Positions 28,641 to 53,391 of a stretch of DNA of 64,000 nucleotides are shown here, one piece after another. Position 1 is the stretch's first letter, and every line of letters begins with the position of its first letter. Below the pieces are notes generated by a model that saw nothing but the letters and a program-made list of their open reading frames with translations, ran no database searches and was not told the DNA's origin. This stretch comes from Erythrobacter sp. GTDB lineage: Bacteria > Pseudomonadota > Alphaproteobacteria > Sphingomonadales > Sphingomonadaceae. The stretch lies in the NCBI GenBank assembly GCA_009993605.1, contig JAACTB010000010.1:54091-118090 (forward strand), given 5' to 3'. The position numbers and the translations under genes were made by a program.

Positions 28641-28690
28641 TGTTTTCCGCACGCCTTCGGCGCGCGAAATCCTCGCGCCTGACGGGTCCG
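28641..28690 (+). repeat. Truncated copy of the dispersed multi-hairpin repeat
   Basis: Repeats the first 45 bases of the full copy that follows (TTTTCCGCACGC, then GCGCGCGA and CCTCGCGCCTGACGG), then breaks off. It lies right after the protease stop codon. Confidence 0.7.
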
Positions 28691-28701
28691 AGCGGTTTTG
28701 A

Positions 28702-28929
28702 TTTTTCCGCACGCCATCCGGCGCGCGATTTCCTCGCGCCTGGCGGCGCTGCGGACGGGCGGTCGCCCTTGCGGACCCTTTCGGGTCCGAGCTCCGCCAC
28801 CACACCAACGGGTTCGGCCAGGAACGGGCGGCGACCAGCCGACCGCAAGCGCGACCGCGCGCCCGCAGGTGCCCGACCGAAGGGAGGATTAGCACCGAGG
28901 ACGAACCGGCGGAGGCCGGTTCGAAACAT
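28702..28929 (+). repeat. Dispersed multi-hairpin repeat, copy A
   Basis: About 228 bases, nearly full length. Order of recognisable hairpins: CCGCACGCC/GGCGCGCG, GGACCC-TTTC-GGGTCC, GGCGGCGACCAGCCGACC region, and AACCGGC-GGAG-GCCGGTT at the end. It fills the 326-base gap between protease and capsid, so transcripts of the capsid gene would carry it as a leader. Confidence 0.85.
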
Positions 28930-28963
28930 AAAAATTCCCGATTTCCACACGAAAGGACCTTAT

Positions 28964-30130
28964 ATGGACTTCCCGACCACCACTCCCGACACGAGCCCCG
29001 CTCCCGCCCCCGACATCGCAGAAGTCAGCTTCGACATCGTCGCGCGGCAGGACCGGACCGAGGCCGAGGTGACCGCGCTCAGGACCGATGTCGAGGAGGT
29101 GAAGGCCCGCGTCGATCGCATCTCCCGCGCCGCCGCTCGCCCCGCCCTCGCCCCCTCGGGCCAGGAAACCGCCCCGGAAGTGAAGGGCTTCGTCGACGGT
29201 TATCTGCGCCGGGGCGCCGCGCATGAGATCAAGTCGATCAGCGGCGCCGTGCCGTCCGATGGCGGCTATGCCGTGCCGCGACAGATCGACGCCGCCATCG
29301 CCCGCGCCCTGACCGAGATCAGCCCGATCCGCGCGATCGCGCAGGTGGTCCAGACCGGCAGCGCGGGCTATCGCAAGCTCGTGACCACCGGCGGCACCGC
29401 CAGCGGCTGGGTCAGCGAGACCACCGCACGGCCCGGCACCGCCACGCCCGATTTCCACGAGATCGCCCCGCCGACCGGCGAACTCTATGCCAATCCGGCG
29501 GCCTCTCAGGCCATGGTCGACGATGTCGGCTTCGACCTCGAAGCATGGCTGGCGAGCGAGATCGCGGTGGAATTCGCCCGGGCCGAAGGCGCCGCCTTTG
29601 TCAACGGGAGCGGGAACAACCAGCCCGAAGGCTTCCTCACCGCCCCTGCCACCACGGCGGCGGACGGCGTGCGCAGCTTCGGATCGCTCCAATATATCGG
29701 GAGCGGCGATGCGGCGGGCCTCGGCGGGTCGCCCGAATTGCGCCTGATCGACCTCGTCCATACGCTGAAGGCGGGGCATCGCCAGGGTGCGAGCTTCGTG
29801 ATGAATTCGGCGACGCTGGCCGAGGTGCGCAAGGTGAAGACGGCGGACGGCGCCTTCCTGTGGCAGCCCGGCCTCGTGGAAGGCCAGCCCGATCGCCTGC
29901 TCGGCTATCCGGTGATCGAGGCGGAGGACATGCCGGACGTGGCGGCGGGCGACTATCCGATCGCCTTCGGCAATTTCCGCCACGGCTATCTGATCGCGGA
30001 ACGCAGCGCGACCCAGATCCTGCGCGATCCCTTCACCAACAAGCCCTTCGTCCACTTCTACGCCACCAAGCGCGTGGGCGGACAGGTGCTCGACGGTAAC
30101 GCGATCAAGCTGTTGAAGATCGAGGCGTAA
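28964..30130 (+). CDS. GTA major capsid protein (g5)
   Basis: 388 aa from the ATG at 28964 (GAAAGGA 6 bases upstream); the open frame continues upstream into the repeat but has no start with a site. HK97 fold: an N-terminal delta-like helical region with EVTALRTDVEEVKARVD (about 41-57), then SISGAVPSDGGYAVPRQI marking the start of the mature part (about 88 on), and C-terminal ANPAASQAMVDDVGFDLEAWLASEIA. The maturation cut should be before the SGAVPSDGG stretch. It is the most abundant structural protein expected. Confidence 0.95.
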   Translation: MDFPTTTPDTSPAPAPDIAEVSFDIVARQDRTEAEVTALRTDVEEVKARVDRISRAAARPALAPSGQETAPEVKGFVDGYLRRGAAHEIKSISGAVPSDGGYAVPRQIDAAIARALTEISPIRAIAQVVQTGSAGYRKLVTTGGTASGWVSETTARPGTATPDFHEIAPPTGELYANPAASQAMVDDVGFDLEAWLASEIAVEFARAEGAAFVNGSGNNQPEGFLTAPATTAADGVRSFGSLQYIGSGDAAGLGGSPELRLIDLVHTLKAGHRQGASFVMNSATLAEVRKVKTADGAFLWQPGLVEGQPDRLLGYPVIEAEDMPDVAAGDYPIAFGNFRHGYLIAERSATQILRDPFTNKPFVHFYATKRVGGQVLDGNAIKLLKIEA

Positions 30131-30154
30131 TTTTTTCGCCTCAAGCGCCGGCGG

Positions 30155-30240
30155 CCGCGTCCGCGGCCTTGGCTATCCTCGCGCCTGACGGCGCTGCGGG
30201 CGCGCAGTCGCGCTTGCCTCGCCTTCGGCTCGGATAGTCT
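30155..30240 (+). repeat. Partial copy E of the dispersed repeat
   Basis: Shares CCTCGCGCCTGACGGCGCTG and CGGGCG-CAGTCGC with copy A. The outer part is degenerate. It occupies the gap between capsid and connector genes (187 bases); the rest of the gap shows a purine-poor tract and the ribosome binding site of the next gene. Confidence 0.6.
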
Positions 30241-30317
30241 CCCCAGCCGCGCTTCCTTTGGGGGAGGAAGAACCCCTGTCCTCCCCCACCCTTCTCCCCT
30301 TTTTCAAGGACCCGCCC

Positions 30318-30641
30318 ATGCCGACCCCTATCGTCGTGCCCGATCTGTCGGGCGCGCCGCTCGCTGCGCTGAAGGAGTGGCTCGCGATCGCGGGTCCGCG
30401 CGAGGATGCGCTGCTGCTGCGTCTGCTGGCGGCCGGATACGAGACCTGCCTCCGCTTCGTCTCGTTGGAAGAGCCACCCGCCGAATGGTCGCAGGACTGG
30501 AACGCGCTTCCGACCGCGCTCGCCGAGGGGATCGTGCGCTTCGCCGCCTGGCTCTATCGCGAGCGGGACGGCGCCGCCGACCGTCCGCCGCCCGCAGCGG
30601 TCGCGGCCCTGTGGCGCCCTTATCGCACGATGCGCCTGTGA
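30318..30641 (+). CDS. GTA head-tail connector, gp6-like (g6)
   Basis: 107 aa from the ATG at 30318 (AAGGA 7 bases upstream). All-helical, with LAALKEWLAIAGPREDALLLRLLAAGYETC and LAEGIVRFAAWLYRERDG (quoted partly) typical of HK97 gp6-like connectors. It is about half of the RcGTA adaptor length, as common in this order. The next gene starts at an overlapping GTG. Confidence 0.85.
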   Translation: MPTPIVVPDLSGAPLAALKEWLAIAGPREDALLLRLLAAGYETCLRFVSLEEPPAEWSQDWNALPTALAEGIVRFAAWLYRERDGAADRPPPAAVAALWRPYRTMRL

Positions 30642-30802
30642 GCGGGATTGTGTTCGACCGTCTCGCCGCGTCCCTGATGGCGCGCGCCGAACGCATCGCC
30701 CGCACCCGGCGCCGCGCCAGCCGAAGCGCCCCCAGAAGCGCCGTCAGAAACGCCGATCGCTGGCGTTCCGCGCCGTATCTCTGGCCCCTGTTCGCGAATT
30801 GA
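30638..30802 (+). CDS. Very short protein in the GTA head-tail stopper position (g7)
   Basis: 54 aa, start GTG overlaps the TGA of the connector gene. Strongly basic (12 arginines), with [11 protein letters not shown] and a hydrophobic end YLWPLFAN. In RcGTA the g7 protein in this place has about 110 residues with a beta-barrel fold, which cannot fit here. Either a shorter protein takes over, or the frame is a remnant. Basic composition suggests contact with DNA. Tight overlap with g6 supports that it is translated. Confidence 0.6.
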   Translation: MSGIVFDRLAASLMARAERIARTRRRASRSAPRSAVRNADRWRSAPYLWPLFAN

Positions 30803-30812
30803 GAGCCGTACC

Positions 30813-31205
30813 ATGGAAGCCCTGTTCCGCACTCACCTGATCGCCTGGCTGCGCGCCGATCCTGCCCTCGCATCCCGGCTCAACGCCATCGAGGAGGAAA
30901 GCCCCGCCGCCTCGAGTCCGCCCTGGCTCGGCATAGCGGCGAGCGCGGCCGCCGATTGGAGCGGCAAGACCTTTGCCGGCCGCGAGGTTCGCGTGGCGCT
31001 CGAACTGGTCGATCGCAACGACGACGGGGCGACGACTGCCGAGACGGTGGCGCTGATCGAACGCCGTATCGCGACGATGGCGCCGGTCCAGCAAGGCTAT
31101 CGCCTGGTCGCAACCCAGTTCCTCAGAAGCCGCGCCGAACGGCGAGCAAAGGGATTGAGAGCTGTGCTGATCGAGTACCGGTTTCGATTACTTGGAGAGT
31201 TTTAG
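30813..31205 (+). CDS. GTA tail terminator, DUF3168 (g8)
   Basis: 130 aa. DUF3168 proteins form the hexameric ring that ends the tail tube. Conserved features are FRTHLIAWLRADPALASRLNAI near the N-terminus and LIERRIATMAPVQQGYRLVATQFL in the second half. It is 10 bases after the short stopper-position gene. Confidence 0.9.
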   Translation: MEALFRTHLIAWLRADPALASRLNAIEEESPAASSPPWLGIAASAAADWSGKTFAGREVRVALELVDRNDDGATTAETVALIERRIATMAPVQQGYRLVATQFLRSRAERRAKGLRAVLIEYRFRLLGEF

Positions 31206-31206
31206 T

Positions 31207-31430
31207 GTTTCGAACCCGCCTCCGCGGGTTCGTCCTCGGTGCTGTTCTTCCCTTCGGTCGGGCACCTGCGGTGCGCGCGCGTGCGCTTGCAGTCGGCTGG
31301 TCGCCGACCGGTCCATTCCCGGCCTTGAGGCCTGGCGGCGGAGCACGGGCCGCAGGCCTGCAAGGGCGACCGCCCGCCCGCAGCGCCGTCAGGCGCGAGG
31401 ACATCGCACGCCGGATGGCGTGCGGAAATC
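31207..31430 (-). repeat. Dispersed multi-hairpin repeat, copy B (inverted)
   Basis: Same element as copy A but reverse-complemented: it begins with TTCGAACCCGCCTCCGCGGGTTCG and ends with CGCACGCCGGATGGCGTGCGG. It fills the gap between g8 and the major tail gene and leaves only about 20 bases for the ribosome binding site. Confidence 0.85.
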
Positions 31431-31449
31431 AAGAAAAGGAGATCTACTC

Positions 31450-31857
31450 ATGACCGTCCAGAAAGGCGCCGCCTTCCTTCTCAAGATCGGCGATGGCGCC
31501 CCCACGCCCGCCTACGAAACCGTCGCGGGGCTGCGCACCACGCAGATGAGTGTCAACGGCGACACCGTGGTCGTCACGCATAAGGGTTCGGGCGGATGGC
31601 GCGAGCTGTTGTCTGGCGCGGGCACGCGCTCGGTCTCGGTTTCGGCGAGCGGGATCTTCCTCGGCTCGGACGCCGAAGCGCGGGTCCGTACTCATGCCCT
31701 CGCAGGAACGCTCGACCAGTACGAGCTGAGCTTCGAGGACGGGGCGAAGATGCGCGGGCAATTCCTCGTCCAGCGGCTCGATTATTCGGGCGATTTCAAC
31801 GGCGAGCGGACCTATGCGATGCAGCTGGAAAGCAGCGGTGCGGTGGTGCCGTCGTGA
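31450..31857 (+). CDS. GTA major tail tube protein (g9)
   Basis: 135 aa from the ATG at 31450 (AAAAGGAG 8 bases upstream). Tail tube family (TP901-1 major tail protein type): TVQKGAAFLLKIGDG at the start, VAGLRTTQMSVNGDTVVVTHK, and GWRELLSGAGTRSVSVSASGIF (quoted partly). It should be one of the most abundant structural proteins. The TGA overlaps the GTG of the next gene. Confidence 0.92.
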   Translation: MTVQKGAAFLLKIGDGAPTPAYETVAGLRTTQMSVNGDTVVVTHKGSGGWRELLSGAGTRSVSVSASGIFLGSDAEARVRTHALAGTLDQYELSFEDGAKMRGQFLVQRLDYSGDFNGERTYAMQLESSGAVVPS

Positions 31858-32312
31858 CCCGCGCTCAAGCAGCCAAAGGCGGTAGCGCAGAAGGGACTCC
31901 CCGCGCTCAAGCAGCCGAAGGCGGTAGCGCGGAAGAGACTCCCCGCGCTCAAGCAGCCGAAGGCGGTAGCGCGGAAGAGACTCCCCGCGCTCAAGCAGCC
32001 GAAGGCGGTAGCGCGAACAAATTACGCGGCGAAGCTTCGATACTCGTCGCCGGTCGTGCCTGCCTGTTGCGCCCGAGTTTCGACGCGCTGGTGCGGGCGG
32101 AGGAAGAATTGGGGCCGCTGTTCGCGCTGGTCGAGCGGGCAGGCGAGGGCCAACTCAAGCTCGCAGAGATCGCGGCTTTGTTCTGGCACTGCCTTGTTGA
32201 TCGCGCCGTCCCGCGCGAACAGGTGGGCGAGGCGGTGATGGCGCTGGGCCTTGCCCGCTGCACCGCGCCGCTGCGCATACTTCTGAGCCAGATCCTGAAG
32301 GGCACCGGGTGA
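31854..32312 (+). CDS. GTA tail assembly chaperone with 14-aa tandem repeats (g10)
   Basis: 152 aa, start GTG overlapping the tail-protein stop. Residues about 2-55 are four copies of a 14-aa unit (RAQAAEGGSAEETP, first and last copies variant). From about 58 the sequence becomes a Phage_TAC_11-like domain: GEASILVAGRACLLRPSFDALVRAEEELG (given as a range), IAALFWHCL. Such proteins chaperone the tape measure before tail assembly. The repeats are not a known feature of the family; they preserve the frame and look recently expanded. Confidence 0.85.
   Translation: MTRAQAAKGGSAEGTPRAQAAEGGSAEETPRAQAAEGGSAEETPRAQAAEGGSANKLRGEASILVAGRACLLRPSFDALVRAEEELGPLFALVERAGEGQLKLAEIAALFWHCLVDRAVPREQVGEAVMALGLARCTAPLRILLSQILKGTG
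31857..32015 (+). repeat. 42-bp tandem repeat, about 3.8 copies
   Basis: Units at 31857-31898, 31899-31940, 31941-31982 and 31983-32015 (partial). Units 2 and 3 are identical over all 42 bases; unit 1 differs at 4-5 positions. Each unit has CGCGCT...AGCGCG ends and a GCCGAAGGC centre, so it can fold. Confidence 0.95.
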
Positions 32313-32500
32313 CGCGCTTTTCCGATACGGCGCTGCGCCTGTCGGGCCTCGCCGCGCGGGCGCTGGGGTGGACGCCGCCGGTGTTCTGGGCGGCGACGCC
32401 GGCGGAACTCGCCGCCTGTATCGGCCATGAAGCTGCTCCTGCCGAACCGCCCGACCGCGCCGAGATCGCGGCCATGATCGAAAGGGATCGCCATGGATGA
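32309..32500 (+). CDS. GTA tail assembly chaperone, Phage_TAC_6-like (g10.1)
   Basis: 63 aa. GTG-start frame coupled to g10 by a 4-base overlap. Contains the family pattern RALGWTPPVFWAATPAELAACI and an N-terminal F-S-D-T-A-L-R-L-S-G-L. This short second chaperone corresponds to the RcGTA gene between g10 and g11. It ends 8 bases inside the tape measure gene. Confidence 0.82.
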   Translation: MTRFSDTALRLSGLAARALGWTPPVFWAATPAELAACIGHEAAPAEPPDRAEIAAMIERDRHG

Positions 32501-33071
32501 TGAATTGGACCCGCTATTGGTTGAAATTCGCGCCGACACCGCCGGTTTCGCTGCCGACGTCGCGCGGATGCGGGCGAGCTTCGACGGACAATTGCTCGAT
32601 GGCTTCGCGCGCGCGGGCGACGTGCTCGAACGCGGATTGCTGTCCGCGATCCGCAAGGGCAGCCTCGGCTTCGAGGACCTGAAGCGCGTGGCGCTCGGCG
32701 CGCTCGACCAGATCGCAGGGCAGGCGCTTCAGCTGGGGCTGGATCGCGTGCTGGGCGGTGGGGGGAAATCGGGAGGAGGTATCGGCGGCGTGCTCGCGGG
32801 CCTGCTCGCCGGGCTGACCGGCCTCCCCGGCCGCGCGACCGGCGGTCTCGTTTCGCCCGAACGGCCCTATCTGGTGGGCGAAAGGGGCCCGGAACTCTTC
32901 GTGCCCGCCAGCGCGGGCCGGGTCGAACCGAACCGCGAGGGCGCCTCGCGCGGTCGTGACGTGCGCGTGAACATCGCCCTCCCCACCGCCCGCGGAACCG
33001 AAAGCCCGGTCGCGCTCAGACGTTCGGCAAGGCAGATCGCAAGCGCCGTAAGACGAGCGGTGATGGAATAA
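32493..33071 (+). CDS. GTA tail tape measure protein (g11)
   Basis: 192 aa, unusually short for a tape measure but fitting the short tails of GTAs. N-terminal helical part (IRADTAGFAADVARMRASF), then a Gly-rich hydrophobic stretch (about 88-118), then GLVSPERPYLVGERGPELFVPASAGRV (about 118-144), which is the hallmark of the family, and an arginine-rich tail. Read-through to the DUF2460 gene is interrupted by 150 bases containing repeat copy C. Confidence 0.88.
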   Translation: MDDELDPLLVEIRADTAGFAADVARMRASFDGQLLDGFARAGDVLERGLLSAIRKGSLGFEDLKRVALGALDQIAGQALQLGLDRVLGGGGKSGGGIGGVLAGLLAGLTGLPGRATGGLVSPERPYLVGERGPELFVPASAGRVEPNREGASRGRDVRVNIALPTARGTESPVALRRSARQIASAVRRAVME

Positions 33072-33090
33072 GAAGAACCAAAAAAGCGTG

Positions 33091-33202
33091 GCAGGATCGG
33101 TCGGCGACCAGCCGACCGCAAGGGCACGCGCCCGCCCCGCAGGTGCCCTGAGCGAAGCGAAGGAACAGCGCCGAGGACGAACCGGCGGAGGCCGGTTCGC
33201 AA
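33091..33202 (+). repeat. Dispersed multi-hairpin repeat, copy C (second half only)
   Basis: About 112 bases matching the second half of copy A: GGTCGGCGACCAGCCGACC, CCCCGCAGGTGCCC, CGCCGAGGACGAACCGGCG and GGAGGCCGGTTCG. It lies in the leader of the DUF2460 gene, ending 20 bases before its ATG. Confidence 0.8.
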
Positions 33203-33221
33203 TGAAAGGACTCAAAAAATC

Positions 33222-35561
33222 ATGCCCTTCTGGCTCGCCCGTCGTCGCGATGGGCAGGACGAGGACGCGATCCAGCGGTTCGATCCCCGCTTCTGGACCG
33301 TCAATTTCCCCCGCCCCATGATGGCAAGCGTCGTCACCACCGCGCCCGACGCCCTGCGCGTCGAGTGCGAGTTCTACCACGAGGGCGAGATCGCGGGGTT
33401 GATCTGGGCAAGCGAGGATGTGCTCGACCATCCGCTGCTGCGCTATGCGACCGACCGCGATTATTCGCGCACCGTGCTGACCTTTCGCTGGCGGTCCGCC
33501 GGGATCGTGCCGCTCGACCAGCCGAACGGGCCGACGCTGACGATCGAAGGCCGCGATGCGAGCGGCGCGGCGCGGGTCTGGTATGTGCGGCTGTGGAATT
33601 ACGCGGTCGGCACGCCCGAGGACGCGGTAGTCACTCTGCGCTTCTCGGACCTCCAATCGGGCTACGTCCTGCCCGGCGAACTCGTCCATCCCGCCGATAT
33701 CGATCGGATGTTCGTCAGCCTCGTGCCCGCATCCTACGTGCCTGACAGCACACAGGCTCTCCTCGCGCGCAGCGAAGCCTGGGCCGAGATGAGCGACATC
33801 GCCTGCCATGGCGAGCGCGCGATGCTGACGATCGGCGACGTCATGCTCCCCGCCCATGGCGAGGGCATCGCCACCGCCTATGACGACAGCTTCAACCAGA
33901 CGCCCACGCGCCTGCTGCGCACGATCGAGGCGCTCGGCTATCGCGACCGGATCGTCCATTATGTCGGGATGAGCCATTATTTTCGGCTCGAACCGGCGGG
34001 CGGCGGCCATTACGTCAGCCTGGCGGGCGGCGTGCTGTCGCGCGTATGCGAGGCGTGGCACCGCGCCTTCGCCGCAGAAGCCATGGCGCGCGGTTTCACC
34101 GTGATCTGGTCGCTGTCCTACGAACTGTTCGACGCGCATTGCTGGAACGACTGGAAACAGCGCGCCCATGACGGAACGCCCGCGCTGACCGGGTGGGTGC
34201 CGCCATCGACTCTGCTGTCGCCCGCGCATGACGGGGCGATGGGCTATCTGCGCCAGGTCGCCTCGGCCTTCGTGCGGATCGCTTTGGATGCCGAAATGCC
34301 GGTCGAGTTCCAGATCGGCGAGCCGTGGTGGTGGGTCCAGCCGCAGGGGCGCAAACCCTGTTTCTACGATGCTGCGGCTGAGGCGATCTTGCCGGACGCG
34401 GCGCCGATCCTGGACATGCGTCAGCCTATGGATGCGGACCAGCTCGCCCGGCTCGACGCGGCGGGCGCGCTGCTGGCGCAATCGACGGCGGCGCTGGCCC
34501 AGACGGTCCGCGATGCGACACTGAATGCCGGCGGGGGCGAGGCGGAAATCCTGCTGCTCGCTTTCACGCCGACAATTCTCGATCCCGAAATGCCCGAATT
34601 GAAGCGCGTGAACCTTCCCGTCGGCTGGGCCCATCCTGCCTTCGATCGACTACAGTTAGAAGATTACGACTGGCTGACCGATGGCGCCACCGCCGCGCGG
34701 CGCGCGGGCTACGCTCTGGTGCAGGAGCGGCTCGGCTATCCGCTGGAGAACCAGGATTACCTCTCGGGCTTCGTGCTGCTGGCCGAGGATGCCGAGCTCT
34801 ATTGGCGGCGGATCGATCGTGGGCTCGACGAGGCGCGGGAGCGTGGCGTTCCCCGCCGCTACGTCTGGGCGCTGCCGCAGATCGCGCGCGACGGATACAC
34901 GCGGCTGCCGCGACCCCATGACAGTGAGGAGACTTCCATGACGCCCTTCGACGATGTCGCCTATCCGCTCGCGCTGGGCCGGGACGCTTCGGTCAGCCCC
35001 GAATTCTCCACCTCGGTCGCCCTCACGGCTTCGGGGCACGAACGGCGCAACGCGCTGTGGTCCGACGCGCGGCTGCGCTTCGATGTCGGGCCGGGTATAC
35101 GCTCGGAAAAGGAACTCGGCACGCTGATCGCCTTCTTTCGTGCCCGCCACGGCCCGGCACGCGGGTTCCGTTTGCGCGATCCGTTCGATTTCAGTTCGCG
35201 CGGAATGACGGGCGCTCCCACCGCCTTCGACCAGGTCATCGCCACGGGTGACGGCCTCGCCTCCGAATTCGCGCTGATCAAGACCTATGACGAGCAGGTC
35301 CGCCGCATCACGCGCCCGGTCGCCGGTTCGGTCCTGGTCAGCGTCGACGGGGTTCCGACGAGCGAATGGGCGCTGGGCGAGAGCGGCACGATTCTCCTCG
35401 ACACGGCGCCACCCATGGACGCGATCGTCCGCGCGGGCTTCCTGTTCGACGTGCCGGTGCGCTTCGCCGAGGACCGGATCGACGTATCCGGTCTCAATTT
35501 CGCAGCCGGGGAAGCGCCGTCAATCCCATTGATCGAATTGCGGGAGGAAACCTTCGCGTGA
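33222..35561 (+). CDS. GTA TIM-barrel-like/DUF2460 fusion protein (g12 position)
   Basis: 779 aa. The last 207 residues (from about 573) are a complete DUF2460 distal tail protein: FDDVAYPLALGRDASVSPEF, ARHGPARGFRLRDPFDFSSRG and RITRPVAGSVLVSVDG. The first 570 residues form a separate part: a beta-rich segment, then an apparent TIM barrel with VIWSLSYELFDAHCWNDW (about 305-322), QIGEPWWWVQPQ (about 364-375) and PILDMRQPM. Glutamates there could be glycosidase-type, but activity is not shown. An ATG at 34938 with GAGGAG 6 bases upstream could also give a free DUF2460 protein. I recall the name 'non-contractile tail sheath' for similar fusions; I am not certain. Confidence 0.85.
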   Translation: MPFWLARRRDGQDEDAIQRFDPRFWTVNFPRPMMASVVTTAPDALRVECEFYHEGEIAGLIWASEDVLDHPLLRYATDRDYSRTVLTFRWRSAGIVPLDQPNGPTLTIEGRDASGAARVWYVRLWNYAVGTPEDAVVTLRFSDLQSGYVLPGELVHPADIDRMFVSLVPASYVPDSTQALLARSEAWAEMSDIACHGERAMLTIGDVMLPAHGEGIATAYDDSFNQTPTRLLRTIEALGYRDRIVHYVGMSHYFRLEPAGGGHYVSLAGGVLSRVCEAWHRAFAAEAMARGFTVIWSLSYELFDAHCWNDWKQRAHDGTPALTGWVPPSTLLSPAHDGAMGYLRQVASAFVRIALDAEMPVEFQIGEPWWWVQPQGRKPCFYDAAAEAILPDAAPILDMRQPMDADQLARLDAAGALLAQSTAALAQTVRDATLNAGGGEAEILLLAFTPTILDPEMPELKRVNLPVGWAHPAFDRLQLEDYDWLTDGATAARRAGYALVQERLGYPLENQDYLSGFVLLAEDAELYWRRIDRGLDEARERGVPRRYVWALPQIARDGYTRLPRPHDSEETSMTPFDDVAYPLALGRDASVSPEFSTSVALTASGHERRNALWSDARLRFDVGPGIRSEKELGTLIAFFRARHGPARGFRLRDPFDFSSRGMTGAPTAFDQVIATGDGLASEFALIKTYDEQVRRITRPVAGSVLVSVDGVPTSEWALGESGTILLDTAPPMDAIVRAGFLFDVPVRFAEDRIDVSGLNFAAGEAPSIPLIELREETFA
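34926..34940 (+). promoter_or_regulatory. Internal ribosome binding site and start codon for a free DUF2460 protein
   Basis: GAGGAG (34926-34931), six bases, then ATG (34938-34940), in frame with the long gene. Starting here gives a 207-aa protein the size of RcGTA g12. Confidence 0.6.
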
Positions 35562-36789: not shown

Positions 36790-36795
36790 ATCACC

Positions 36796-45356: not shown

Positions 45357-46325
45357 TCAGATCTGGCCGAAACACCAGCGCAAAATGGATTTCTGCGCAT
45401 GGATCCGGTTCTCGGCCTCGTCGAACACCACCGATTGCGATCCTTCGAAAACCTCCTCGTTAACCTCGTCGCCGACATGGGCGGGAAGGCAATGCAGGAA
45501 CAGCGCATCGGATTTCGCCGCGCCCATCAGGGCGGCGTCGACTCGGAAGGGGTCCATTGCGGCAAGCTTGGCCTCTGCGTGGTCCTGCCCCATCGAGATC
45601 CAGGTGTCGGTCACCAGCACATCCGCGCCCTCGGCCGCCGCGCGGGCGTCCTGCGTCAGCGAAATCGTGGCCCCGCCCGCGCGCGCCATCTCCACGAACT
45701 CCGCTTCCGGCTCGTAGCCCTGCGGCGTGGCCACGCGGACGTTGAACTTCATCAGCCCCGCCGCCTCCAGGATCGAATGGAGCACGTTGTTACCGTCTCC
45801 GAACCAAGCGAGCTCAAGGCCCGGCAGAGCCTTTCCGTGTTCGACCAGCGTCAGCAGGTCGGCGACGATCTGGCAGGGATGCGAACGGTCGGTCAGGCCG
45901 TTGATGACGGGGACATGGGCGTGGTGGGCAAGTTCTTCAGCCTTGGCATGATCGTCGGTGCGGATCATGATCGCATCCACCATCCGGCTGAGCACGCGCG
46001 CGGTATCGGCGATGCTCTCGCCCCGACCAAGCTGGCTGGTACCCGCATCTAAGATCAGCGCGCTGCCGCCCAATTGCCGCATCCCGATATCGAAGCTGAC
46101 GCGGGTGCGGGTGGAGGCCTTTTCGAAGATCATTCCCAAGACATAACCCGCCAGGGGTGCATCCGAATCGGGCTTCCCCTTCGGCCAACCCGCGCGCGCC
46201 GCCTTGCGATCCACCGCATCGCCGATCATCGCGGCAATCGCGTTCCCGCCCGCATCCGACAGGTCGAGGAACTTGCGCACGGAGGGCGCAAGGTCGAGTG
46301 CGTCGCCGGTCATGCCCCCCGTCAT
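45357..46325 (-). CDS. argF: Ornithine carbamoyltransferase
   Basis: Ornithine + carbamoyl phosphate to citrulline. 322 aa. Carbamoyl-phosphate binding motif [13 protein letters not shown] (about 68-80); ornithine-binding region [10 protein letters not shown] and [11 protein letters not shown]. It overlaps argD by 4 bases (ATGA), so argD-argF-hslO is one operon. Confidence 0.96.
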
Positions 46326-47515: not shown

Positions 47516-47558
47516 GGGGTTCTCCGGTAAAAATTCGATTGGTTGGATAGGCTCCCGA

Positions 47559-47600
47559 ACGAGAAATGGCGGCCCCCGAGAGGAACCGCCATTCTCGTTT
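47559..47600 (-). terminator. Hairpin between the cold-shock gene and argD
   Basis: AACGAGAAATGGCGG pairs with CCGCCATTCTCGTT (one bulge). It lies 67 bases after the stop of the cold-shock gene on the minus strand and 44 bases upstream of argD. There is no long T tail; it probably slows or stops read-through into argD. Confidence 0.55.
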
Positions 47601-47666
47601 GCTCGGCGTTCTATGGTCTCACGCCTGCCCGGTCAAACCGGGAGCGGGACCAGGCCGGTCCGCTTC

Positions 47667-48446
47667 TCAGTCGGAAGCGGGGACCAGATTGACCGCCGAG
47701 TACTTGCCGCGTCGGTCGACCTCGAGATCGAAGCTGTAACGCTCCCCCTCGTTGATCCCGGCGAGGCCGGACCGTTCGACCGCGCTGATGTGCACGAACG
47801 CGTCGGGCTGGCCATCGTCGCGCGTCAGGAAGCCGAAGCCCTTCATCGCGTTGAAGAACTTGACCGTGCCGGTCGCCTTCTCACCGGTCACTTCGCGCTT
47901 GGGCGGGCCACCGGCATTGCCGGCGGGCACCACGTCACCCACGATCTGGAGATCTTGCGCGGACACCTTCCCACCGCGGTCGACGAGGTTGAATTCTAGC
48001 TCCTGGCCTTCGCCCAGACCTTCGAGGCCGGCGCGTTCGACGGCGCTGATGTGGACGAAGATATCTTCGCCCCCGCCATCTTGCTGGATGAAGCCGAAAC
48101 CCTTCTGGGCGTTGAAGAACTTGACCGTTCCCTTGCCCGTGCCGACGACCTGAGCGGGCATGCGGTTTCCACCGCCGCCGCCACCGCCGCCGCCACGGAA
48201 ACCACCGCCGCCGCCGCCGAAGCCGCCACCGCCGCCGCGATCGTCACCGCCGAAGCCGCCTCCGCCGCCGCCACGGTAACCGCCGCCACCGCCACCGCGA
48301 TAGCCGCCACCACCGCCGCCGCCGCCGTAACCGCCGCGATCGTCACCGCCGAAGCCGCCCCCCGGAGGGCCGCCGAAGGGATCGTAATCTTCGCCGATAC
48401 CGTCGCGCTTGTCCCGTCCCCGTCGACGGCCTTTATCGTAACCCAT
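47667..48446 (-). CDS. Double cold-shock-domain protein with glycine-rich RGG-like N-terminus
   Basis: 259 aa. Residues about 25-92 are almost only Gly with Arg, Tyr, Phe and Asp (GGYRGGGGGG, GGFGGDDRGG), as in eukaryotic RGG/GRP RNA-binding proteins. Two cold-shock domains follow: GTVKFFNAQKGFGFIQQDGG...DIFVHISAVE (about 104-132) and GTVKFFNAMKGFGFLTRDDG...AFVHISAVE (about 193-222), each with RNP1 and RNP2. It binds single-stranded nucleic acid; Gly-rich tails may drive condensation. Confidence 0.9.
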   Translation of the reverse strand: MGYDKGRRRGRDKRDGIGEDYDPFGGPPGGGFGGDDRGGYGGGGGGGGYRGGGGGGYRGGGGGGFGGDDRGGGGGFGGGGGGFRGGGGGGGGGNRMPAQVVGTGKGTVKFFNAQKGFGFIQQDGGGEDIFVHISAVERAGLEGLGEGQELEFNLVDRGGKVSAQDLQIVGDVVPAGNAGGPPKREVTGEKATGTVKFFNAMKGFGFLTRDDGQPDAFVHISAVERSGLAGINEGERYSFDLEVDRRGKYSAVNLVPASD

Positions 48447-48725
48447 AATTCAAAACATACCTTTGCGCCGCCCCGTCGTGAGTGCGCCGGATCGAGGGCC
48501 GCGAATGCGAACCGGCGCGGGACGGCCATGCCCGAAAAGGCAAATCCGCCCCATTATCGATTCCCCCATAGCGGCAAATCGAACGAGAGGCGAACGATTT
48601 AGCGCCGATGAACGAAATCGCGCATCATTATGACATTTTCGCCAATCCTGACGGCTCCTATTGGAACCGATCCTTCATTCCGCTTGGCGATTGCGTTGTT
48701 TGGCGAAGGAAGGCATTCGCGCGGC

Positions 48726-49565
48726 ATGGACATTCTGGCACTTCTTTCTGACCCCGCCGCTTGGCTCGCCCTGCTCACGCTCATCGCGCTCGAAGTGGTG
48801 TTGGGGATCGACAATCTGATCTTCATCGCGATCCTGTCGAACAAATTGCCCGAGCATCAACAGCAGCGCGCCCGGCGAATCGGCCTGTCGCTGGCCCTGA
48901 TCATGCGGATCGGGATGCTGATGCTGATCGGCTGGCTGGTGACCTTGCAGACGCCCTTGTTCGATCTCGGCATCCAGGGCGCGCCGAACGAATATGGCGA
49001 GCCGAGCTTCGATACCGCCTTTTCGGGGCGCGACCTGATCCTGCTCGTCGGGGGCCTGTTCCTGCTGTGGAAGGCGACCAAGGAAATCCACCATTCGATG
49101 GAGCCGGAAGACAATTCGGGCGATCTTCTCGACAAAACGCCGGGCAAGACCCCGACGGTCGGCGATGCGGTAAAGGCCAGCTTCGCCACCGTGATCGCGC
49201 AGATCGTGGCGATCGATCTCGTCTTCTCGGTCGATTCGATCCTCACCGCCGTGGGCATGACCGACGATATCCCGATCATGGTCGCCGCCGTGGTCATCAC
49301 CGTCGCCATCATGATGATCGCTGCCGATCCGCTGGCGCGCTTCATCGAGAAGAACCCGACGCTGGTGATGCTCGCGCTGGCCTTTCTCGTCATGATCGGC
49401 GTGGTGCTGATCGCCGACGGGTTCGGCTTCCACGTGCCCAAGGGCTATATCTACGCGGCGATGGGTTTCTCGGTCGGAGTCGAGATTCTCAACATCGTTC
49501 AGCGCAATCGCCGTATGAAGAGGCGCGCCGCCGAGACCAATGCCGCCAGGGAGAACGCAGCATGA
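48726..49565 (+). CDS. TerC family membrane protein
   Basis: 279 aa from the ATG at 48726. Seven or more helices; LALLTLIALEVVLGIDNLIFIAIL and ATVIAQIVAIDLVFSVDSILTAVG carry the two conserved acidic motifs of TerC (quoted partly as ranges 12-35 and 153-177). TerC proteins export manganese or support metal loading of exported proteins. The TGA overlaps the next ATG. The 280 bases upstream contain the divergent promoter of the cold-shock gene, but no clear box was found. Confidence 0.92.
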   Translation: MDILALLSDPAAWLALLTLIALEVVLGIDNLIFIAILSNKLPEHQQQRARRIGLSLALIMRIGMLMLIGWLVTLQTPLFDLGIQGAPNEYGEPSFDTAFSGRDLILLVGGLFLLWKATKEIHHSMEPEDNSGDLLDKTPGKTPTVGDAVKASFATVIAQIVAIDLVFSVDSILTAVGMTDDIPIMVAAVVITVAIMMIAADPLARFIEKNPTLVMLALAFLVMIGVVLIADGFGFHVPKGYIYAAMGFSVGVEILNIVQRNRRMKRRAAETNAARENAA

Positions 49566-50002
49566 GCGAATTCAAACCGATTGCCGACGGATTCTTCGCC
49601 GCCGGCCAAATCGATGATGGCGATATAGTGCGCGCGAAACAGGCGGGCATCGTCGCCGTGGTGAACAACCGCCCCGATGGCGAAGTGCCGGACCAGCCGC
49701 CCGGCGACACGATCCGTGCGGCGGCTGACGAAGCGGGCCTTGCCTATACTGCGATCCCGATCGGGCCGAACGGCTTCAGCCTCGAAGATGTCGAAGCGCT
49801 GGCCAGTGTGCTCGACACGGCAGACGGGTCGGTCCTCGGCTTCTGCCGGACGGGCACCCGCTCGACCTTGCTCTGGGCGCTCGCTCAGGCCCACAAGGGT
49901 CGCGATCTCGACGAGGTGGCGGGCAAAGCGGCTGAGGCGGGCTATGACGTCTCGCCGGTCAGACCCGCAATGGAGCAGCTCGCAGCCCGCGCCCGATCCT
50001 GA
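49562..50002 (+). CDS. TIGR01244-type sulfur transferase/phosphatase
   Basis: 146 aa, start coupled to TerC by ATGA. P-loop C-R-T-G-T-R-S (LGFCRTGTRSTLLW) is at about residue 96; NNRPDGEVPDQPPGDTI is the family's N-terminal signature. This group is related to dual-specificity phosphatases and rhodanese-like BlhA proteins. The natural substrate is not known. Confidence 0.87.
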   Translation: MSEFKPIADGFFAAGQIDDGDIVRAKQAGIVAVVNNRPDGEVPDQPPGDTIRAAADEAGLAYTAIPIGPNGFSLEDVEALASVLDTADGSVLGFCRTGTRSTLLWALAQAHKGRDLDEVAGKAAEAGYDVSPVRPAMEQLAARARS

Positions 50003-50013
50003 TTTCGCAAGCG

Positions 50014-50412
50014 GTGGGACTTCCGCCCGACCTGCTGCGGTTTGCCGGATCGCTCCTCGCAATCCTCTTGCTCGCGGGTATGGCGTGGTCGCTCAAACTG
50101 GGCCCGCAGCGCAGGCTGGACAGCGACAACGCAGCGCGCGAGGCGGCCCGTGAGGCGCTGGACGGGTTCGAGCCCGTCGCCTTAGCTCGCGATCGCGAAG
50201 GCCGCGCCGCCCTGCTGCGCGATGCCGACGATCGCCTTCTCCTGATTCGCCAACACGGGTCGCATTTCGCCGGACGCCTGCTTGGCGAAAATGCCAGCGC
50301 CCGGATCGAGAACGGCGCGCTGATCGTCGACAGCGGCGAGCGGCGCTACGGCGCGGTGCGGCTCGCCATCGCCGATGCCGAAGCTTGGAGAGACGCGATC
50401 GCGCGCCTATGA
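50014..50412 (+). CDS. Membrane-anchored protein of unknown function
   Basis: 132 aa, GTG start. One hydrophobic helix (about 9-26), then a small soluble domain with a repeated beta pattern (ALLRDADDRLLLIRQHGSHFAGRLL) and RRYGAVRLAI. Lies between the phosphatase and sterol desaturase genes with gaps of 11 and 10 bases, so it is co-transcribed. No family recognised with confidence. Confidence 0.7.
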   Translation: MGLPPDLLRFAGSLLAILLLAGMAWSLKLGPQRRLDSDNAAREAAREALDGFEPVALARDREGRAALLRDADDRLLLIRQHGSHFAGRLLGENASARIENGALIVDSGERRYGAVRLAIADAEAWRDAIARL

Positions 50413-50422
50413 TCGCACGACC

Positions 50423-51358
50423 ATGCCGGATTTCTCGCCCACCGAACTCGCCGTGCCCGGCTTCGTCGCGCTGGTTCTGATCGAGATGATCTGGGCGTGG
50501 CGCAAGCGGCGCGAGGCGTACGAGCCGCGCGACACGCTTACCAGCCTCGCCTTCGGCCTCGGGAGCACGGTGGCGGGGCTGCTGACCGGCGGTCTCTTTC
50601 TCGCCCTGTTCCTGTGGGCGTGGCAGTTCCGCATGTTCGACATCGGGTGGAGCTGGTGGGCCTTCGCGCTGTGCTTCGTGCTCGACGATCTGGCCTATTA
50701 CTGGGTTCACCGCTTCGGCCACCGGGTACGCTGGTTCTGGGCGAGCCACGTCAATCACCATTCCAGCCAGCACTACAATCTCTCGACCGCGCTGCGCCAG
50801 ACCTGGACCGGGTTCCTGACGCTGGGCTTCGCGTTCAAGCTGCCGCTGGTTTTGCTCGGCTTCCACCCCGGAATGATCGCGATCTGCGCGGGTTTCAATC
50901 TGATCTACCAATTCTGGATCCACACCGAAGCGATCAAGAAAATGCCGCGTTGGTTCGAAGCGGTGATGAACACGCCCAGCCATCACCGCGTCCACCACGC
51001 CACCAACCCCCGCTATCTCGACAAGAATTATGCGGGCGTTTTCATCATCTGGGACAGGCTGTTCGGCACGTTCGAGGCCGAGCGCGACGACGAAAAAATC
51101 CGCTACGGCATCGTCAGGCAGCTCGGCAGTTTCAACCTGCTCTGGGCGGTGTTCCACGAATGGATCGGCATCGCTCAGGATGTTCGCCGCGCGCCGTGGC
51201 GGCACAAACTGTCCTATCTTTTGCGCGAACCCGGCTGGAGCCATGACGGCAGCCGCCAGACCTCGGACCAGATCCGCGCCGACTGGATCGCGCGATCCGA
51301 GGCCGCGAACAAGGTTGCAGTCCAAAACGCGATTGCCGAGACGGGAAAGCCTACCTAA
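50423..51358 (+). CDS. Sterol desaturase/fatty acid hydroxylase family protein
   Basis: 311 aa, integral membrane di-iron enzyme. Histidine boxes: HRFGHRVRWFWASHVNHHSSQHYN, then HHRVHHATNPRYLDKNYAG (quoted partly). Four or five helices surround them. Such proteins hydroxylate or desaturate lipids, including carotenoids and hopanoid or ornithine lipids; substrate unknown. The start at 50423 overlaps nothing and follows the preceding stop by 10 bases. Confidence 0.9.
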   Translation: MPDFSPTELAVPGFVALVLIEMIWAWRKRREAYEPRDTLTSLAFGLGSTVAGLLTGGLFLALFLWAWQFRMFDIGWSWWAFALCFVLDDLAYYWVHRFGHRVRWFWASHVNHHSSQHYNLSTALRQTWTGFLTLGFAFKLPLVLLGFHPGMIAICAGFNLIYQFWIHTEAIKKMPRWFEAVMNTPSHHRVHHATNPRYLDKNYAGVFIIWDRLFGTFEAERDDEKIRYGIVRQLGSFNLLWAVFHEWIGIAQDVRRAPWRHKLSYLLREPGWSHDGSRQTSDQIRADWIARSEAANKVAVQNAIAETGKPT

Positions 51359-51383
51359 CCTCTCTCCCAGAGGGAGAGATGAA

Positions 51384-52967
51384 ATGGACGAATTCGACGT
51401 CATCGTGGTCGGCGGCGGCAGCGGCGGTTGCGCGGTCGCAGGCCGTTTGGCCGAGGCAGGGTACAGCGTCTGCCTGCTGGAGGCGGGCGGGCGCAACGAC
51501 ACTTTCGGGGTCAAGACCCCCGCAATGCTCGCCTTCACCGGGCCCAAGATCAATTACCGCTACGAAACCGTGCCCCAGAAGGGGCTGAACGGGCGGCGGG
51601 GCTATCAGCCGCGCGGCAAGGGGCTCGGCGGATCGTCGGCGATCAACGCGATGGTCTATATTCGCGGCAATCGCTACGATTACGACAATTGGGCGGCCCT
51701 CGGCTGCGACGGGTGGAGCTATGACGACGTGCTCCCCTATTTCAAGCGCGCCGAGCACAATGTGCGTGGGTCCGACGCCTATCACGGCGCATCCGGCCTC
51801 TTGTGGGTGAGCGACCAGAGCGCGGTAAATCCCGGCAGCCATGCCTTCGTCGAGGCCGCGACGCAGCTCCAGCTTCCGCATAATCGCGATTTCAACGGCG
51901 CGAAGCAGGAAGGCTTCGGGCTCTATCAGGTGACCCAGAAGGATGGCGAACGCTGGTCGGCCTCGCGCGGCTATGTCGAGCCGCTGCGCAAGTCGCGCAA
52001 TCTGGATGTCCGCATCGGCGTGACGGTTCAGAAGGTGGAGATCGACGATGGGCGCGTGACCGGCGTGACCTATTCGGCAGGCGACCGCCAGCGCACCGTG
52101 CGCGCTCGCGGCGGTGTCGTGATGAGCGCGGGCGCGTTCAATTCGCCGCAGATCCTTATGCTCTCGGGCATCGGGCCGGGCGATCACCTGAACGAGCATG
52201 GGATAACCGTGCAACGGGACTGCAACGCGGTCGGATCGGACCTGCAAGACCATATCGATTACGTTTCGAGCTGGGAGAGCCAGGATGACGGATTTTTCGG
52301 CGACAGCCTGAAGGGCACGGTGCGGATGGCGAAGGCGCTGATCGAGCATCGCCGCCATCGCACCGGCTTGATGACCACCCCCTATGCCGAGGCGGGTGGG
52401 TTCTGGACCGTGATGGAGGATGCGCCCGCGCCCGACATCCAGTGGCATTTCGTCCCCGCCATGCTGGAGGATCACGGGCGGACCAAGGTGAAGGGCCACG
52501 GCTTCTCGCTCCATGCCTGCGTCCTGCGGCCCGAAAGCCGGGGCACGGTGCGGCTCGCCAGCAGGCGCGCAGGCGATGCGCCCGTGATCGATCCGAATTT
52601 CCTCGCCGACGAGCGCGATCTCGAAGTGCTGAGAAAGGGCGTGCGCCTGTCGCACCGGATCGTCGATGCGCCCGCGATGCAGGCGTTCGACCCGAAGGAT
52701 CGCTATCCTATCGATCTCGACGACGATGCGGCGCTCGACGATCTCATCCGCAACCGCGCCGACACGGTCTACCACCCGGTCGGCACCTGCCGCATGGGTT
52801 CGGACGCGGACAGCGTGGTCGATCCGAAGCTGAAAGTGCGCGGGATCGAGGGGTTGTGGATCGCCGATGCCAGCGTGATGCCACGGCTCGTCAGCGGCAA
52901 CACCAATGCGCCGAGCATCATGATCGGCGAAAGATGCGCGGATTTCGTTAAGGACGCGCTGGGGTAA
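51384..52967 (+). CDS. GMC family oxidoreductase (choline dehydrogenase-like)
   Basis: 527 aa from the ATG at 51384 (AGGGAGAG upstream). FAD site VVGGGSGGCAVAGRLAEAG (about 7-25), GMC signature 1 GKGLGGSSAINAMVYIRGN (about 73-91), signature 2 GAFNSPQILMLSGIG, and C-terminal catalytic histidine in YHPVGTCRMG with the NTNAPSIMIGE end. Oxidises an alcohol; the substrate is not clear from sequence. 25 bases after the sterol desaturase gene. Confidence 0.92.
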   Translation: MDEFDVIVVGGGSGGCAVAGRLAEAGYSVCLLEAGGRNDTFGVKTPAMLAFTGPKINYRYETVPQKGLNGRRGYQPRGKGLGGSSAINAMVYIRGNRYDYDNWAALGCDGWSYDDVLPYFKRAEHNVRGSDAYHGASGLLWVSDQSAVNPGSHAFVEAATQLQLPHNRDFNGAKQEGFGLYQVTQKDGERWSASRGYVEPLRKSRNLDVRIGVTVQKVEIDDGRVTGVTYSAGDRQRTVRARGGVVMSAGAFNSPQILMLSGIGPGDHLNEHGITVQRDCNAVGSDLQDHIDYVSSWESQDDGFFGDSLKGTVRMAKALIEHRRHRTGLMTTPYAEAGGFWTVMEDAPAPDIQWHFVPAMLEDHGRTKVKGHGFSLHACVLRPESRGTVRLASRRAGDAPVIDPNFLADERDLEVLRKGVRLSHRIVDAPAMQAFDPKDRYPIDLDDDAALDDLIRNRADTVYHPVGTCRMGSDADSVVDPKLKVRGIEGLWIADASVMPRLVSGNTNAPSIMIGERCADFVKDALG

Positions 52968-53007
52968 TCGAGTTGCGCGTTTTGGTGCGCCCGGCCTCGT
53001 AGAATCC

Positions 53008-53083
53008 GTCACCCCCGCGCAGGCGGGGGTCCAGGCCTTCGGGAGCGGCGCTAGCTGGATCCCCGCCTGCGCGGGGATGACGA
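53008..53083. repeat. Pair of inverted REP palindromes
   Basis: Units at 53008-53035 (ACCCCCGCGCAGGCGGGGGT) and 53055-53083 (GGATCCCCGCCTGCGCGGGG), opposite orientations, in the gap after the GMC gene. Same family as the units around the GIY-YIG gene. Confidence 0.85.
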
Positions 53084-53152
53084 GGCTGGGAGGGTAGCTC
53101 TCGATGTCGGGGTCCAAGCCGAGAGCGCGGGCACCAAGGAACGTGCGTTAAG

Positions 53153-53391
53153 GTTTTGTTTTCCGCACGCGCGTCCGCGCTCGCGATATCCTCGCGCCTG
53201 ACGACGCTGCGGGCGGGCAGTCGCCCTTGCGGACCCTGCGGGTCCGAGCTCCGCCACCAAGCCTAAAGGCTGGGAATGGTCCGGTCCGCGACCAGCGGAC
53301 CGCAAGGGCACGCGCCCGCCCCGCAGGTGCCTCGAAGCGAAGCTGAGGGAACAGCGCCGAGGACGAACCGGCGCAGGCCGGTTCGAAACTT
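53153..53391 (+). repeat. Dispersed multi-hairpin repeat, copy D
   Basis: About 239 bases, full length, in the same order as copy A: CCGCACGCG, CCTCGCGCCTGACG, GGACCCTGCGGGTCC, GGTCCGCGACCAGCGGACC, GAGGACGAACCGGCGC, GGCCGGTTCGAAAC. This copy is outside the GTA cluster. The 550-base gap 52968-53517 holds only the REP pair, this repeat and the amt terminator; no gene was seen. Confidence 0.85.

What the first reader, a model, noticed from the sequence alone, without database searches (positions are those of the whole stretch)
28641..53391. A roughly 230-bp multi-hairpin dispersed repeat present in at least five intergenic places
Copies lie at 28702-28929, 31207-31430 (inverted), 53153-53391, a half copy at 33091-33202, and fragments at 28641-28690 and 30155-30240. 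All have the same order of small palindromes, ending in AACCGGC-GGAG-GCCGGTT. The element has no convincing reading frame. Five copies within 25 kb, most between GTA genes, is a striking density. I know no name for this element; it may be a non-autonomous mobile element or a structured RNA.
Basis: seen in the sequence. Interest (0 to 1): 0.75.

Follow-up and report, generated by a model that had tools for sequence, protein, structure and literature searches.

The report
Multi-hairpin repeat crowding GTA gene clusters
A 230-base repeat made of two mirror-image halves, each folding into four hairpins, has spread through one family of bacteria without carrying a gene of its own, and it sits far more often than expected in the gaps between the genes that build virus-like gene transfer particles.

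Summary
The repeat is real. Full copies lie at about 28696-28935, 31206-31440 (inverted) and 53150-53398, a half at 33091-33206, pieces at 28638-28695 and 30137-30240. The unit is a half of about 105 bases: hairpin D, GCAAG, hairpin C, CCCGCAG, hairpin B, CGAGGA, hairpin A, A-rich tip. A full element is two inverted halves. Covariation is strong in 44 training halves and in 55 halves from other genomes. A covariance model hits 96 of 298 genomes of the family; in a class-wide draw of 337 the only 4 hits are in that family. Sites without the element in relatives point to insertion after divergence. No RAYT link, no Rfam match, no enzyme found. Most likely a non-autonomous palindromic mobile element, REPIN-like in layout but not a member. 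The surprise is location: in 15 genomes, 18 of 109 sites lie in the GTA cluster (0.5% of the DNA, 32-fold), in the same few gaps. Small-terminase-like genes also have it directly upstream (11 of 53, about 0.2 expected), found late and post hoc.

The parts
28638..28695 (+). truncated 5' half (T-tract, outer hairpin, TCCTCG linker, then broken off) directly before the full copy
   Evidence: blastn 28643-28685 to the start of the full copy, 89%; sequence; not present before the orthologous copy in the sister genome
28696..28935 (+). full element 1, between prohead protease (stop 28637) and major capsid gene (start 28964)
   Evidence: R1 hits 28703-28791 (-) and 28823-28927 (+); orthologous copy at the same place in the sister genome, 90%
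28825..28845 (+). hairpin D of the 3' half of element 1 (loop GACCA)
   Evidence: alignment A3 and covariation
28849..28860 (+). hairpin C (GCGC-GACC-GCGC)
28868..28896 (+). hairpin B, outer stem GGTGC/GCACC
28902..28923 (+). outer hairpin A (CGAACCGGC-GGAG-GCCGGTTCG)
28964..30130 (+). GTA major capsid gene, with element DNA on both sides
   Evidence: Pfam PF05065, E 4e-85
30137..30240 (-). half element with the second kind of outer end (CTCAAGCGCCGGCGG), after the capsid gene
   Evidence: R1 30169-30239 (-), 29 bits; sequence
31206..31440 (-). full element 2, inverted, between the tail-completion gene (stop 31205) and the tail tube gene (start near 31450)
   Evidence: R1 hits 31207-31312 (-) and 31344-31429 (+)
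31450..31857 (+). GTA tail tube protein gene
   Evidence: Pfam PF06199, E 8e-42
33091..33206 (+). solo 3' half between the tape-measure gene (stop 33071) and the next tail gene (start 33222)
   Evidence: R1 33096-33203, 109.9 bits, the best hit in the own genome
53150..53398 (+). full element 3, between a GMC oxidoreductase gene and the ammonium transporter gene (convergent)
   Evidence: R1 hits 53160-53248 (-) and 53280-53389 (+); neighbours by Pfam
53397..53429 (-). terminator-like hairpin on the transporter side that abuts element 3
   Evidence: stem 9, A-run next to the element; sequence

Best explanation
A family of non-autonomous, palindromic mobile DNA repeats of the Erythrobacteraceae and kin. 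The unit is the half: four hairpins (D, C, B, A) separated by the short linkers GCAAG, CCCGCAG and CGAGGA and ended by an A-rich tip. Two halves in inverted order make the full 230-base element, much as two REPs make a REPIN. SHOWN: anatomy, fold by covariation, dispersal, relatives without the element at two sites, and about 32-fold over-representation in GTA clusters. INFERRED: copies spread when a factor acting in trans (not a RAYT; identity unknown) recognises the folded half, probably as single-stranded DNA or a cruciform, and it lands in gaps between genes. Once resident, hairpins are kept paired and swapped as modules by copying between the two arms or between copies, with the constant linkers as crossover points. 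In GTA and prophage clusters, insertions that survive fall into the gaps; there they may also act as intercistronic mRNA hairpins around the capsid and tail tube genes. This last step is a guess.
For: Dispersal: 31 blastn pieces in the own genome; all 24 same-genus relatives have at least one match to w1 at E <= 0.001, some weak. Covariation: 91.8% of cells paired against 32-37% for slid structures, 148 double-change cells against 44 in shuffles; in 55 other halves 97.0%, 30-41%, 301 against 86. Distribution: 96 of 298 family genomes, 39 of 96 genera; 4 of 337 in the class draw, all of this family. Sites without the element: the copy at C15:79060 is missing in the sister genome directly after a terminator T-tract, and the tandem halves at C20:27876 are missing there too; of 9 relatives' loci at each site the model finds an element in one each, G001 and G002. 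Same-site changes: one half against two in tandem, a swapped 5' half type. At 8 of about 13 sites shared with the sister genome, 208 stem pairs hold 20 compensated double changes, 8 one-sided changes that keep the pair and 4 breaks, against 3 double and 46 single if arms changed independently. Alleles of most hairpin pairs tested are unlinked, while stem and loop of hairpin C are linked, p 0.002, n 27.
Against: No enzyme was found, and no target duplication at the cleaner empty site. Most own sites are shared with the sister genome, so recent movement is rare. That the folded form is DNA rests on loop types only, and these are mixed: hairpin A fits, hairpin C does not; an energy test failed its control. 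Terminator adjacency is a minority feature: 5 of 55 half ends against 0.5 in shuffled flanks. Not all modules are unlinked: hpD with hpA p 0.03-0.04, hpD with hpB p 0.002 over all 44 rows. Missing elements could be precise losses; the tree counts changes without telling gain from loss. Halves of the second end type score low (29 bits at 30169-30239), so the model under-counts them.
Confidence: 0.62

Rival explanations
1. A structured RNA or mRNA processing/stability element, domesticated: hairpins between cistrons of the GTA polycistron protect or release the capsid and tail tube messages and set their dosage.
For: Strong covariation. Copies recur on both sides of the capsid gene and before the tail tube gene. 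Loci without a model hit in the capsid gap have another strong hairpin there: 61 of 65 with a stem of 9 or more, 54 of 65 at p <= 0.05 by letter shuffles. Capsid is the most abundant GTA protein and, with g11, has the highest codon adaptation, strongest in Sphingomonadales (PMC9765227, passages).
Against: 91 of 109 sites are not in GTA clusters and 7 of 15 GTA-bearing genomes have none there. Both orientations occur. Element ends are A-rich reading outwards, so it is no intrinsic terminator. Stem letters change about as fast as unpaired ones at shared sites (12.5% against 11.6%), which is not what strong purifying selection would give.
Confidence: 0.17
2. A MITE of an ordinary insertion sequence whose transposase acts on terminal inverted repeats (TTTGTTTTTCG.. 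/ ..CGAAAAACAAA).
For: Inverted, T-rich tips and inverted halves; intergenic dispersal.
Against: No target duplication seen. In the listed hits of 15 genomes the only half pairs 0.3-4 kb apart outside GTA clusters are one locus in the own and sister genomes, and it frames a small-terminase-like gene, not a known transposase. No systematic search for insertion sequences was made.
Confidence: 0.1
3. A recognition site for small-terminase (TerS)-like DNA-binding proteins, a dispersed pac-like sequence that travels with or is packaged by GTA and prophage machinery.
For: 11 of 53 listed homologues of a TerS-like protein (phrog_4044, E 2e-16) have the element within 240 bases, all on the upstream side, about 0.2 expected; 3 of 30 family loci in other genomes show the same, 0 in 1.2 Mb of control; enrichment in GTA clusters and presence in phage or prophage pieces.
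Against: The 11 fall into about three groups of equivalent loci, so independent cases are few. 42 of 53 homologues have no listed element nearby. No binding shown; RcGTA packaging is known as near-random (recalled).
Confidence: 0.1
4. A REP/REPIN moved by a RAYT (Y1 tyrosine transposase).
For: Same logic: palindromic unit, inverted dimers, intergenic (PMC2817692 passages, PMC3116915 listing only).
Against: No Y1_Tnp in the own genome; 10 of 96 element genomes have one against 29 of 202 others; no GTAG tag; unit several times longer.
Confidence: 0.03
5. A CsrA-sponging small RNA (GGA in hairpin loops).
For: Hairpin A loops are GGAG/GGAT/GGAC in 105 of 115 tetraloops.
Against: No CsrA over the cut-off in 15 of 15 element-bearing genomes (one weak match in G132); many dispersed copies.
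Confidence: 0.01
6. Chance GC-rich similarity or a local duplication.
For: None found.
Against: Copies on 10 contigs of the own genome, 1 hit in 1.2 Mb of control, covariation.
Confidence: 0.01

Closest known systems
REP / BIME / REPIN with RAYT
   Same: short palindromic units, mostly intergenic, found singly, in tandem and as inverted dimers
   Different: unit is about 105 bases with four hairpins instead of 20-40 bases with one; no GTAG tag; no association with a RAYT
CGTC-tagged REPs of Alphaproteobacteria (PMC3733652, passages)
   Same: alphaproteobacterial, palindromic, often inverted dimers, no dedicated transposase known
   Different: no CGTC head or CCA tail, not a single 8-9 bp stem. 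CGTC-like repeats stand separately in this window
RIME, BOX, ERIC and other mosaic intergenic repeats (recalled)
   Same: modular, structured, intergenic, about 100-300 bases, no gene
   Different: sequence relation not tested; the fixed linker/hairpin order and the GTA bias are not features I recall for any of them
MITEs of insertion sequences
   Same: non-autonomous, inverted ends
   Different: no parental insertion sequence and no target duplication found (not searched systematically)

Membership tests
REP/REPIN (RAYT-mobilised) | a RAYT (Y1 tyrosine transposase) in the genome or lineage | tested here: not met
   none in own genome; 10 of 96 element genomes against 29 of 202 others (overlap counted by hand)
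REP/REPIN (RAYT-mobilised) | GTAG-type unpaired head beside a single hairpin of about 20-40 bases | tested here: not met
   half unit is about 105 bases, four hairpins, linkers GCAAG/CGCAG/CGAGGA
REP/REPIN (RAYT-mobilised) | inverted pairs of units | tested here: met
   full element = two inverted halves
CGTC REPs | CGTC (or TGTC/CCTC) head, 8-9 bp stem, 4-5 base loop, CCA tail | tested here: not met
   definition from passages of PMC3733652; hairpin A is preceded by CGAGGA and followed by an A-rich tip
MITE | no transposase gene, terminal inverted repeats | tested here: met
   no convincing frame
MITE | target site duplication | tested here: inconclusive
   one cleaner empty site shows none, but the right flank has extra bases
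MITE | parental insertion sequence with the same ends | not tested
   only distances between listed half pairs were checked
Known structured RNA (Rfam 15) | match to a covariance model | tested here: not met
   window 28000-54000, E up to 1: two matches, both under their cut-offs and on none of the copies
CsrB-type sponge RNA | host has CsrA | tested here: not met
   0 of 15 genomes over cut-off

The most novel reading that the evidence does not exclude
A mobile multi-hairpin element tied to virus-type packaging machinery: it homes to GTA and prophage structural operons and to the upstream side of small-terminase-like genes, serves those DNA-binding proteins as a pac-like or regulatory site, and has been recruited repeatedly into the same gaps around the capsid and tail tube genes, where it tunes gene transfer agents. 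Its hairpins stay paired by arm-to-arm copying rather than by selection on single letters.
Probability: 0.2. Interest if true: 0.88.

Novelty: new variant of a known kind. Interest (0 to 1): 0.64.

Why it matters
Gene transfer agents are virus-like particles encoded by the cell. A repeat that is about 32 times over-represented in their gene cluster and turns up in the same gaps in several genera is either a clue to how these long operons set capsid dosage, or a sign of a mobile element tied to phage-type operons and their packaging proteins. The shared copies are also a natural record of palindromes whose two arms change together, which makes 'selection on structure or arm-copying mutation?' testable. 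The searches found no description of the element.

Tried and rejected
1. Folded form is DNA, tested by energy: the sense strand of 149 halves is more stable than the antisense with DNA parameters (126 of 149) and not with RNA parameters (78 of 149), but shuffling the unpaired letters gives the same DNA asymmetry (-1.39 against -1.41 kcal/mol), so this is composition, not evidence (first seen on 80 halves). What remains is a mixed loop tally. For: hairpin A was found in 117 of 149 halves, 115 with tetraloops, 110 of them cGNABg; hairpin B tetraloops are GNNA in 25 of 52, only 7 of these GNRA, and CTTG in 18; triloops are GNA in 18 of 31 (B) and 31 of 47 (D). Against: hairpin D tetraloops are GNNA in 10 of 16 but 7 of these are GNRA, and the commonest hairpin C loops (cGACCg, cACGCg) fit none of the motifs. 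cGNNAg, cGNABg, cCNNGg and gCNNGc are in the title of Nakano et al. 2002, seen in the reference list of PMC8373063. The halves were picked by a pattern that fixes the linkers, so linker invariance there is by construction; loops were not fixed.

2. RAYT: rejected. CsrA sponge: rejected. Rfam: nothing on the copies. w1 gives no match at 1e-6 in plasmid or phage records.

3. Terminators as a strict target: rejected as a rule, kept as a tendency (5 of 55 against 0.5; letter shuffles).

4. Pairing of hairpin C arms between the two halves: the C alleles of the two halves of one element often differ (seen), so the local hairpins are the conserved fold; the linkers remain complementary between halves.

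5. A gene framed by two elements like a RAYT: one locus (own C1:655-656 kb, sister C59) frames a TerS-like gene, not a transposase. No Pfam, NCBIfam or PDB match for it.

6. Papers: searches are listings; passages were seen of PMC12306157, PMC3733652, PMC2817692, PMC9765227, PMC8373063. No paper was read whole. Only openly licensed PMC papers are held.
Full report
What is there. The window (G000:C7:54091-118090) holds three full copies, one solo half and two pieces of one repeat. An alignment of 20 near-full copies from this genome and its sister G023 (G023 is Erythrobacter sp. HI0063 by the matching contig L064) shows a symmetric body: the 5' half is the reverse complement of the 3' half in layout. 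Read outward, a half is hairpin D, GCAAG, hairpin C, CCCGCAG, hairpin B, CGAGGA, hairpin A, A-rich tip. Hairpin A comes in two main kinds and a third with a CTCAAGCGCCGG tip; hairpin B is very variable. Solo and tandem halves are common.

Fold. On 44 halves from the genus (A3), 91.8% of 1140 cells are standard pairs, 17 of 26 pairs show double changes, with 148 double-change cells against 44 in shuffles; sliding the partner by 1-3 columns drops pairing to 32-37%. On 55 halves not used to build the model, from family-wide and GTA loci, the figures are 97.0%, 22 of 26, 301 against 86, and 30-41%. The second alignment is fitted to the structure, so its percentage leans upward. Hairpin C changes almost only between G-C and C-G.

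Spread. A covariance model of the half (R1) hits 96 of 298 genomes of the family in 39 of 96 genera (only 13 candidates per genome were scored, with strict filters, so copy numbers are lower bounds). In a class-wide draw of 337 genomes it hits 4, the own one included, all in the same family. The DNA query w1 gave matches in 27 of 41 genomes: the own one, all 24 same-genus relatives (some weak) and two of 16 others at E 3e-4. No match in plasmid or phage records.

Mobility. The full copy at C15:79060 is missing in G023, where the sequence reads straight on after the T-tract of a terminator; the tandem halves at C20:27876 are missing there too. Run on 9 relatives' loci at each site, R1 finds an element in one each, G001 and G002, and otherwise only a weak 15-bit match beside the G023 junction. 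So at both places another species carries its own half. No target duplication could be read. About 13 of the own sites are shared with G023, with local changes: one half against two in tandem, a swapped 5' half, an added 5' half. Movement after the split happened but is rare; remodelling in place is common.

Arms change together. At 8 of the shared sites (those with both 3' halves in A3), 208 stem pairs hold 20 compensated double changes, 8 one-sided changes that keep the pair and 4 breaks; independent change would give about 3 double and 46 single. Stem letters differ at 12.5% and unpaired letters at 51 of 438 (11.6%), so stems are not slower. Linkage between hairpin alleles: hpD with hpC p 0.85, hpC with hpA p 0.46, hpC with outer hpB p 1.0, stem with loop of hpC p 0.002 (n 27); hpD with hpA is weakly linked (p 0.03) and hpD with hpB is linked over all 44 rows (p 0.002) (sister copies are not independent). 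I read this as module exchange and arm-copying, but selection for pairing with fast compensation is not excluded.

Enzyme. PF01797 (RAYT and IS200 type) is absent from the own genome. In the same family draw it occurs in 10 of 96 genomes with the element and 29 of 202 without. Among the 150 listed hits in 15 genomes, half pairs 0.3-4 kb apart lie only in GTA clusters and at one other locus, shared by the own and sister genomes. That locus frames a 204-residue protein with no Pfam, NCBIfam or PDB match but a PHROG match to terminase small subunits (phrog_4044, E 2e-16); the first gene of the window's GTA cluster matches the same PHROG (E 7e-9) and is a distant relative. The moving enzyme is unknown.

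TerS-like genes. Relatives of that protein occur in 14 of 15 genomes. Of the 53 listed, 11 have a listed element hit within 240 bases, all on the upstream side, against about 0.2 if sites lay anywhere. They fall into about three groups of equivalent loci (one of them the first GTA gene of G024), so the independent cases are few. In 30 family loci from other genomes, 3 have such a gene about 100 bases from the element, again with the element upstream; 60 control regions have no such gene.

GTA bias. The window genes are a GTA head-tail cluster: terminase, portal, prohead protease, capsid, tail completion and tail tube by Pfam. In the window and 80 named capsid loci (the best 80 of 493 kept by the tool), R1 gives 52 hits, which with the 16 hits of the genus loci fall, apart from the window's 53 kb copy, into protease|capsid, capsid|next gene, gp8|tail tube, tape|gp12, the upstream side of the cluster (4) and terminase|portal (1). 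In that script three of 15 query frames (gp6, tail tube, one small gene) were translated out of frame, so gp6 mostly drops out and the capsid gap reads capsid|gp8; places are not affected. On a capsid tree the occupancy needs at least 10, 9, 3 and 5 changes for 15, 12, 4 and 7 occupied loci (capsid|next, protease|capsid, gp8|tail tube, tape|gp12; 76-79 loci counted). That is a quick tree of one protein, occupancy was set by hand from model hits plus the window and L078, halves of the second end type seen were not counted, and gain and loss are not separated. Control: 60 regions of 20 kb in 12 genomes that all bear the GTA capsid gene gave 1 hit, while 15 GTA regions gave 21, and 6 of the 8 window hits are in its GTA cluster. 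In whole-genome scans of 15 of the 16 genus genomes with a capsid hit (G015, with a split hit, left out), 18 of 109 merged sites lie in the GTA segment, 0.52% of the DNA, 0.57 expected, 32-fold (from the 150 rows listed; further weak rows were not listed). Without G023 and one edge site: 14 of 94. Eight genomes have at least one, seven none. Two chromosomes whose record ends fall inside the cluster were checked for the rest of it. In element-free loci the tape|gp12 gap has a median of 22 bases between hit ends (n 62).

Independent view. A pattern for the hairpin C core found 58 stretches in IMG/VR; 34 match at least one window GTA gene (some may be related phages), and there 46 of 51 positions lie in the four gaps. 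Of the other 24, genes beside the motif were tested in 14: five loci have phage structural genes (capsid E, baseplate twice, tail fibre, portal and head protease) and three a DUF6441 gene. IMG/VR is a virus collection, so this does not by itself measure a bias.

Possible role. Of 65 loci without a model hit in the capsid|next-gene gap, 61 have a stem of 9 or more there (mean 12.9 against 8.0 in letter shuffles), 54 at p <= 0.05 (a few of these hold relic halves of the second end type). PMC9765227 (passages) reports capsid as the most copied GTA protein, high codon adaptation of capsid and g11, and the strongest selection in Sphingomonadales. An mRNA role is plausible but untested.

Verdict. 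A real, structured, dispersed, gene-less repeat with evidence of past mobility; REPIN-like in logic, not in membership; not described in the papers searched; its GTA bias is the unexpected part.

Noticed in passing
window 26293-26365, 26693-26719, 53056-53082, 58588-58665: Six CGTC-REP-like palindromes (CGTCATTCCCGCG..GCGGGAATCCA), some as inverted pairs, near the GTA terminase-portal gap and element 3; chance expectation 0.
   Followed up: partly
window 26380-26691: A small GIY-YIG endonuclease gene sits between the GTA terminase and portal genes, with CGTC-like repeats on both sides.
   Followed up: partly
window 31858-32015: A 42-base tandem repeat, 3.8 copies, 97% matches, at the start of the GTA gp10 frame.
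   Followed up: no
window 33222-35561: The GTA gp12 gene is a long frame with non-contractile tail sheath domains followed by DUF2460.
   Followed up: no
L064-L143, within 150 bases after the capsid stop: Most GTA loci without a model hit there carry a strong hairpin after the capsid gene, often followed by T-rich sequence.
   Followed up: partly
L039:475-1086 (own C1:655474-656085) and relatives: Orphan small-terminase-like genes in 14 of 15 genus genomes, 11 of 53 listed relatives with the element directly upstream.
   Followed up: partly
L321, L272, L295, L298, L319, L271, L291, L312: The same repeat core occurs in phage or prophage pieces beside structural genes, three times beside a DUF6441 gene.
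   Followed up: partly
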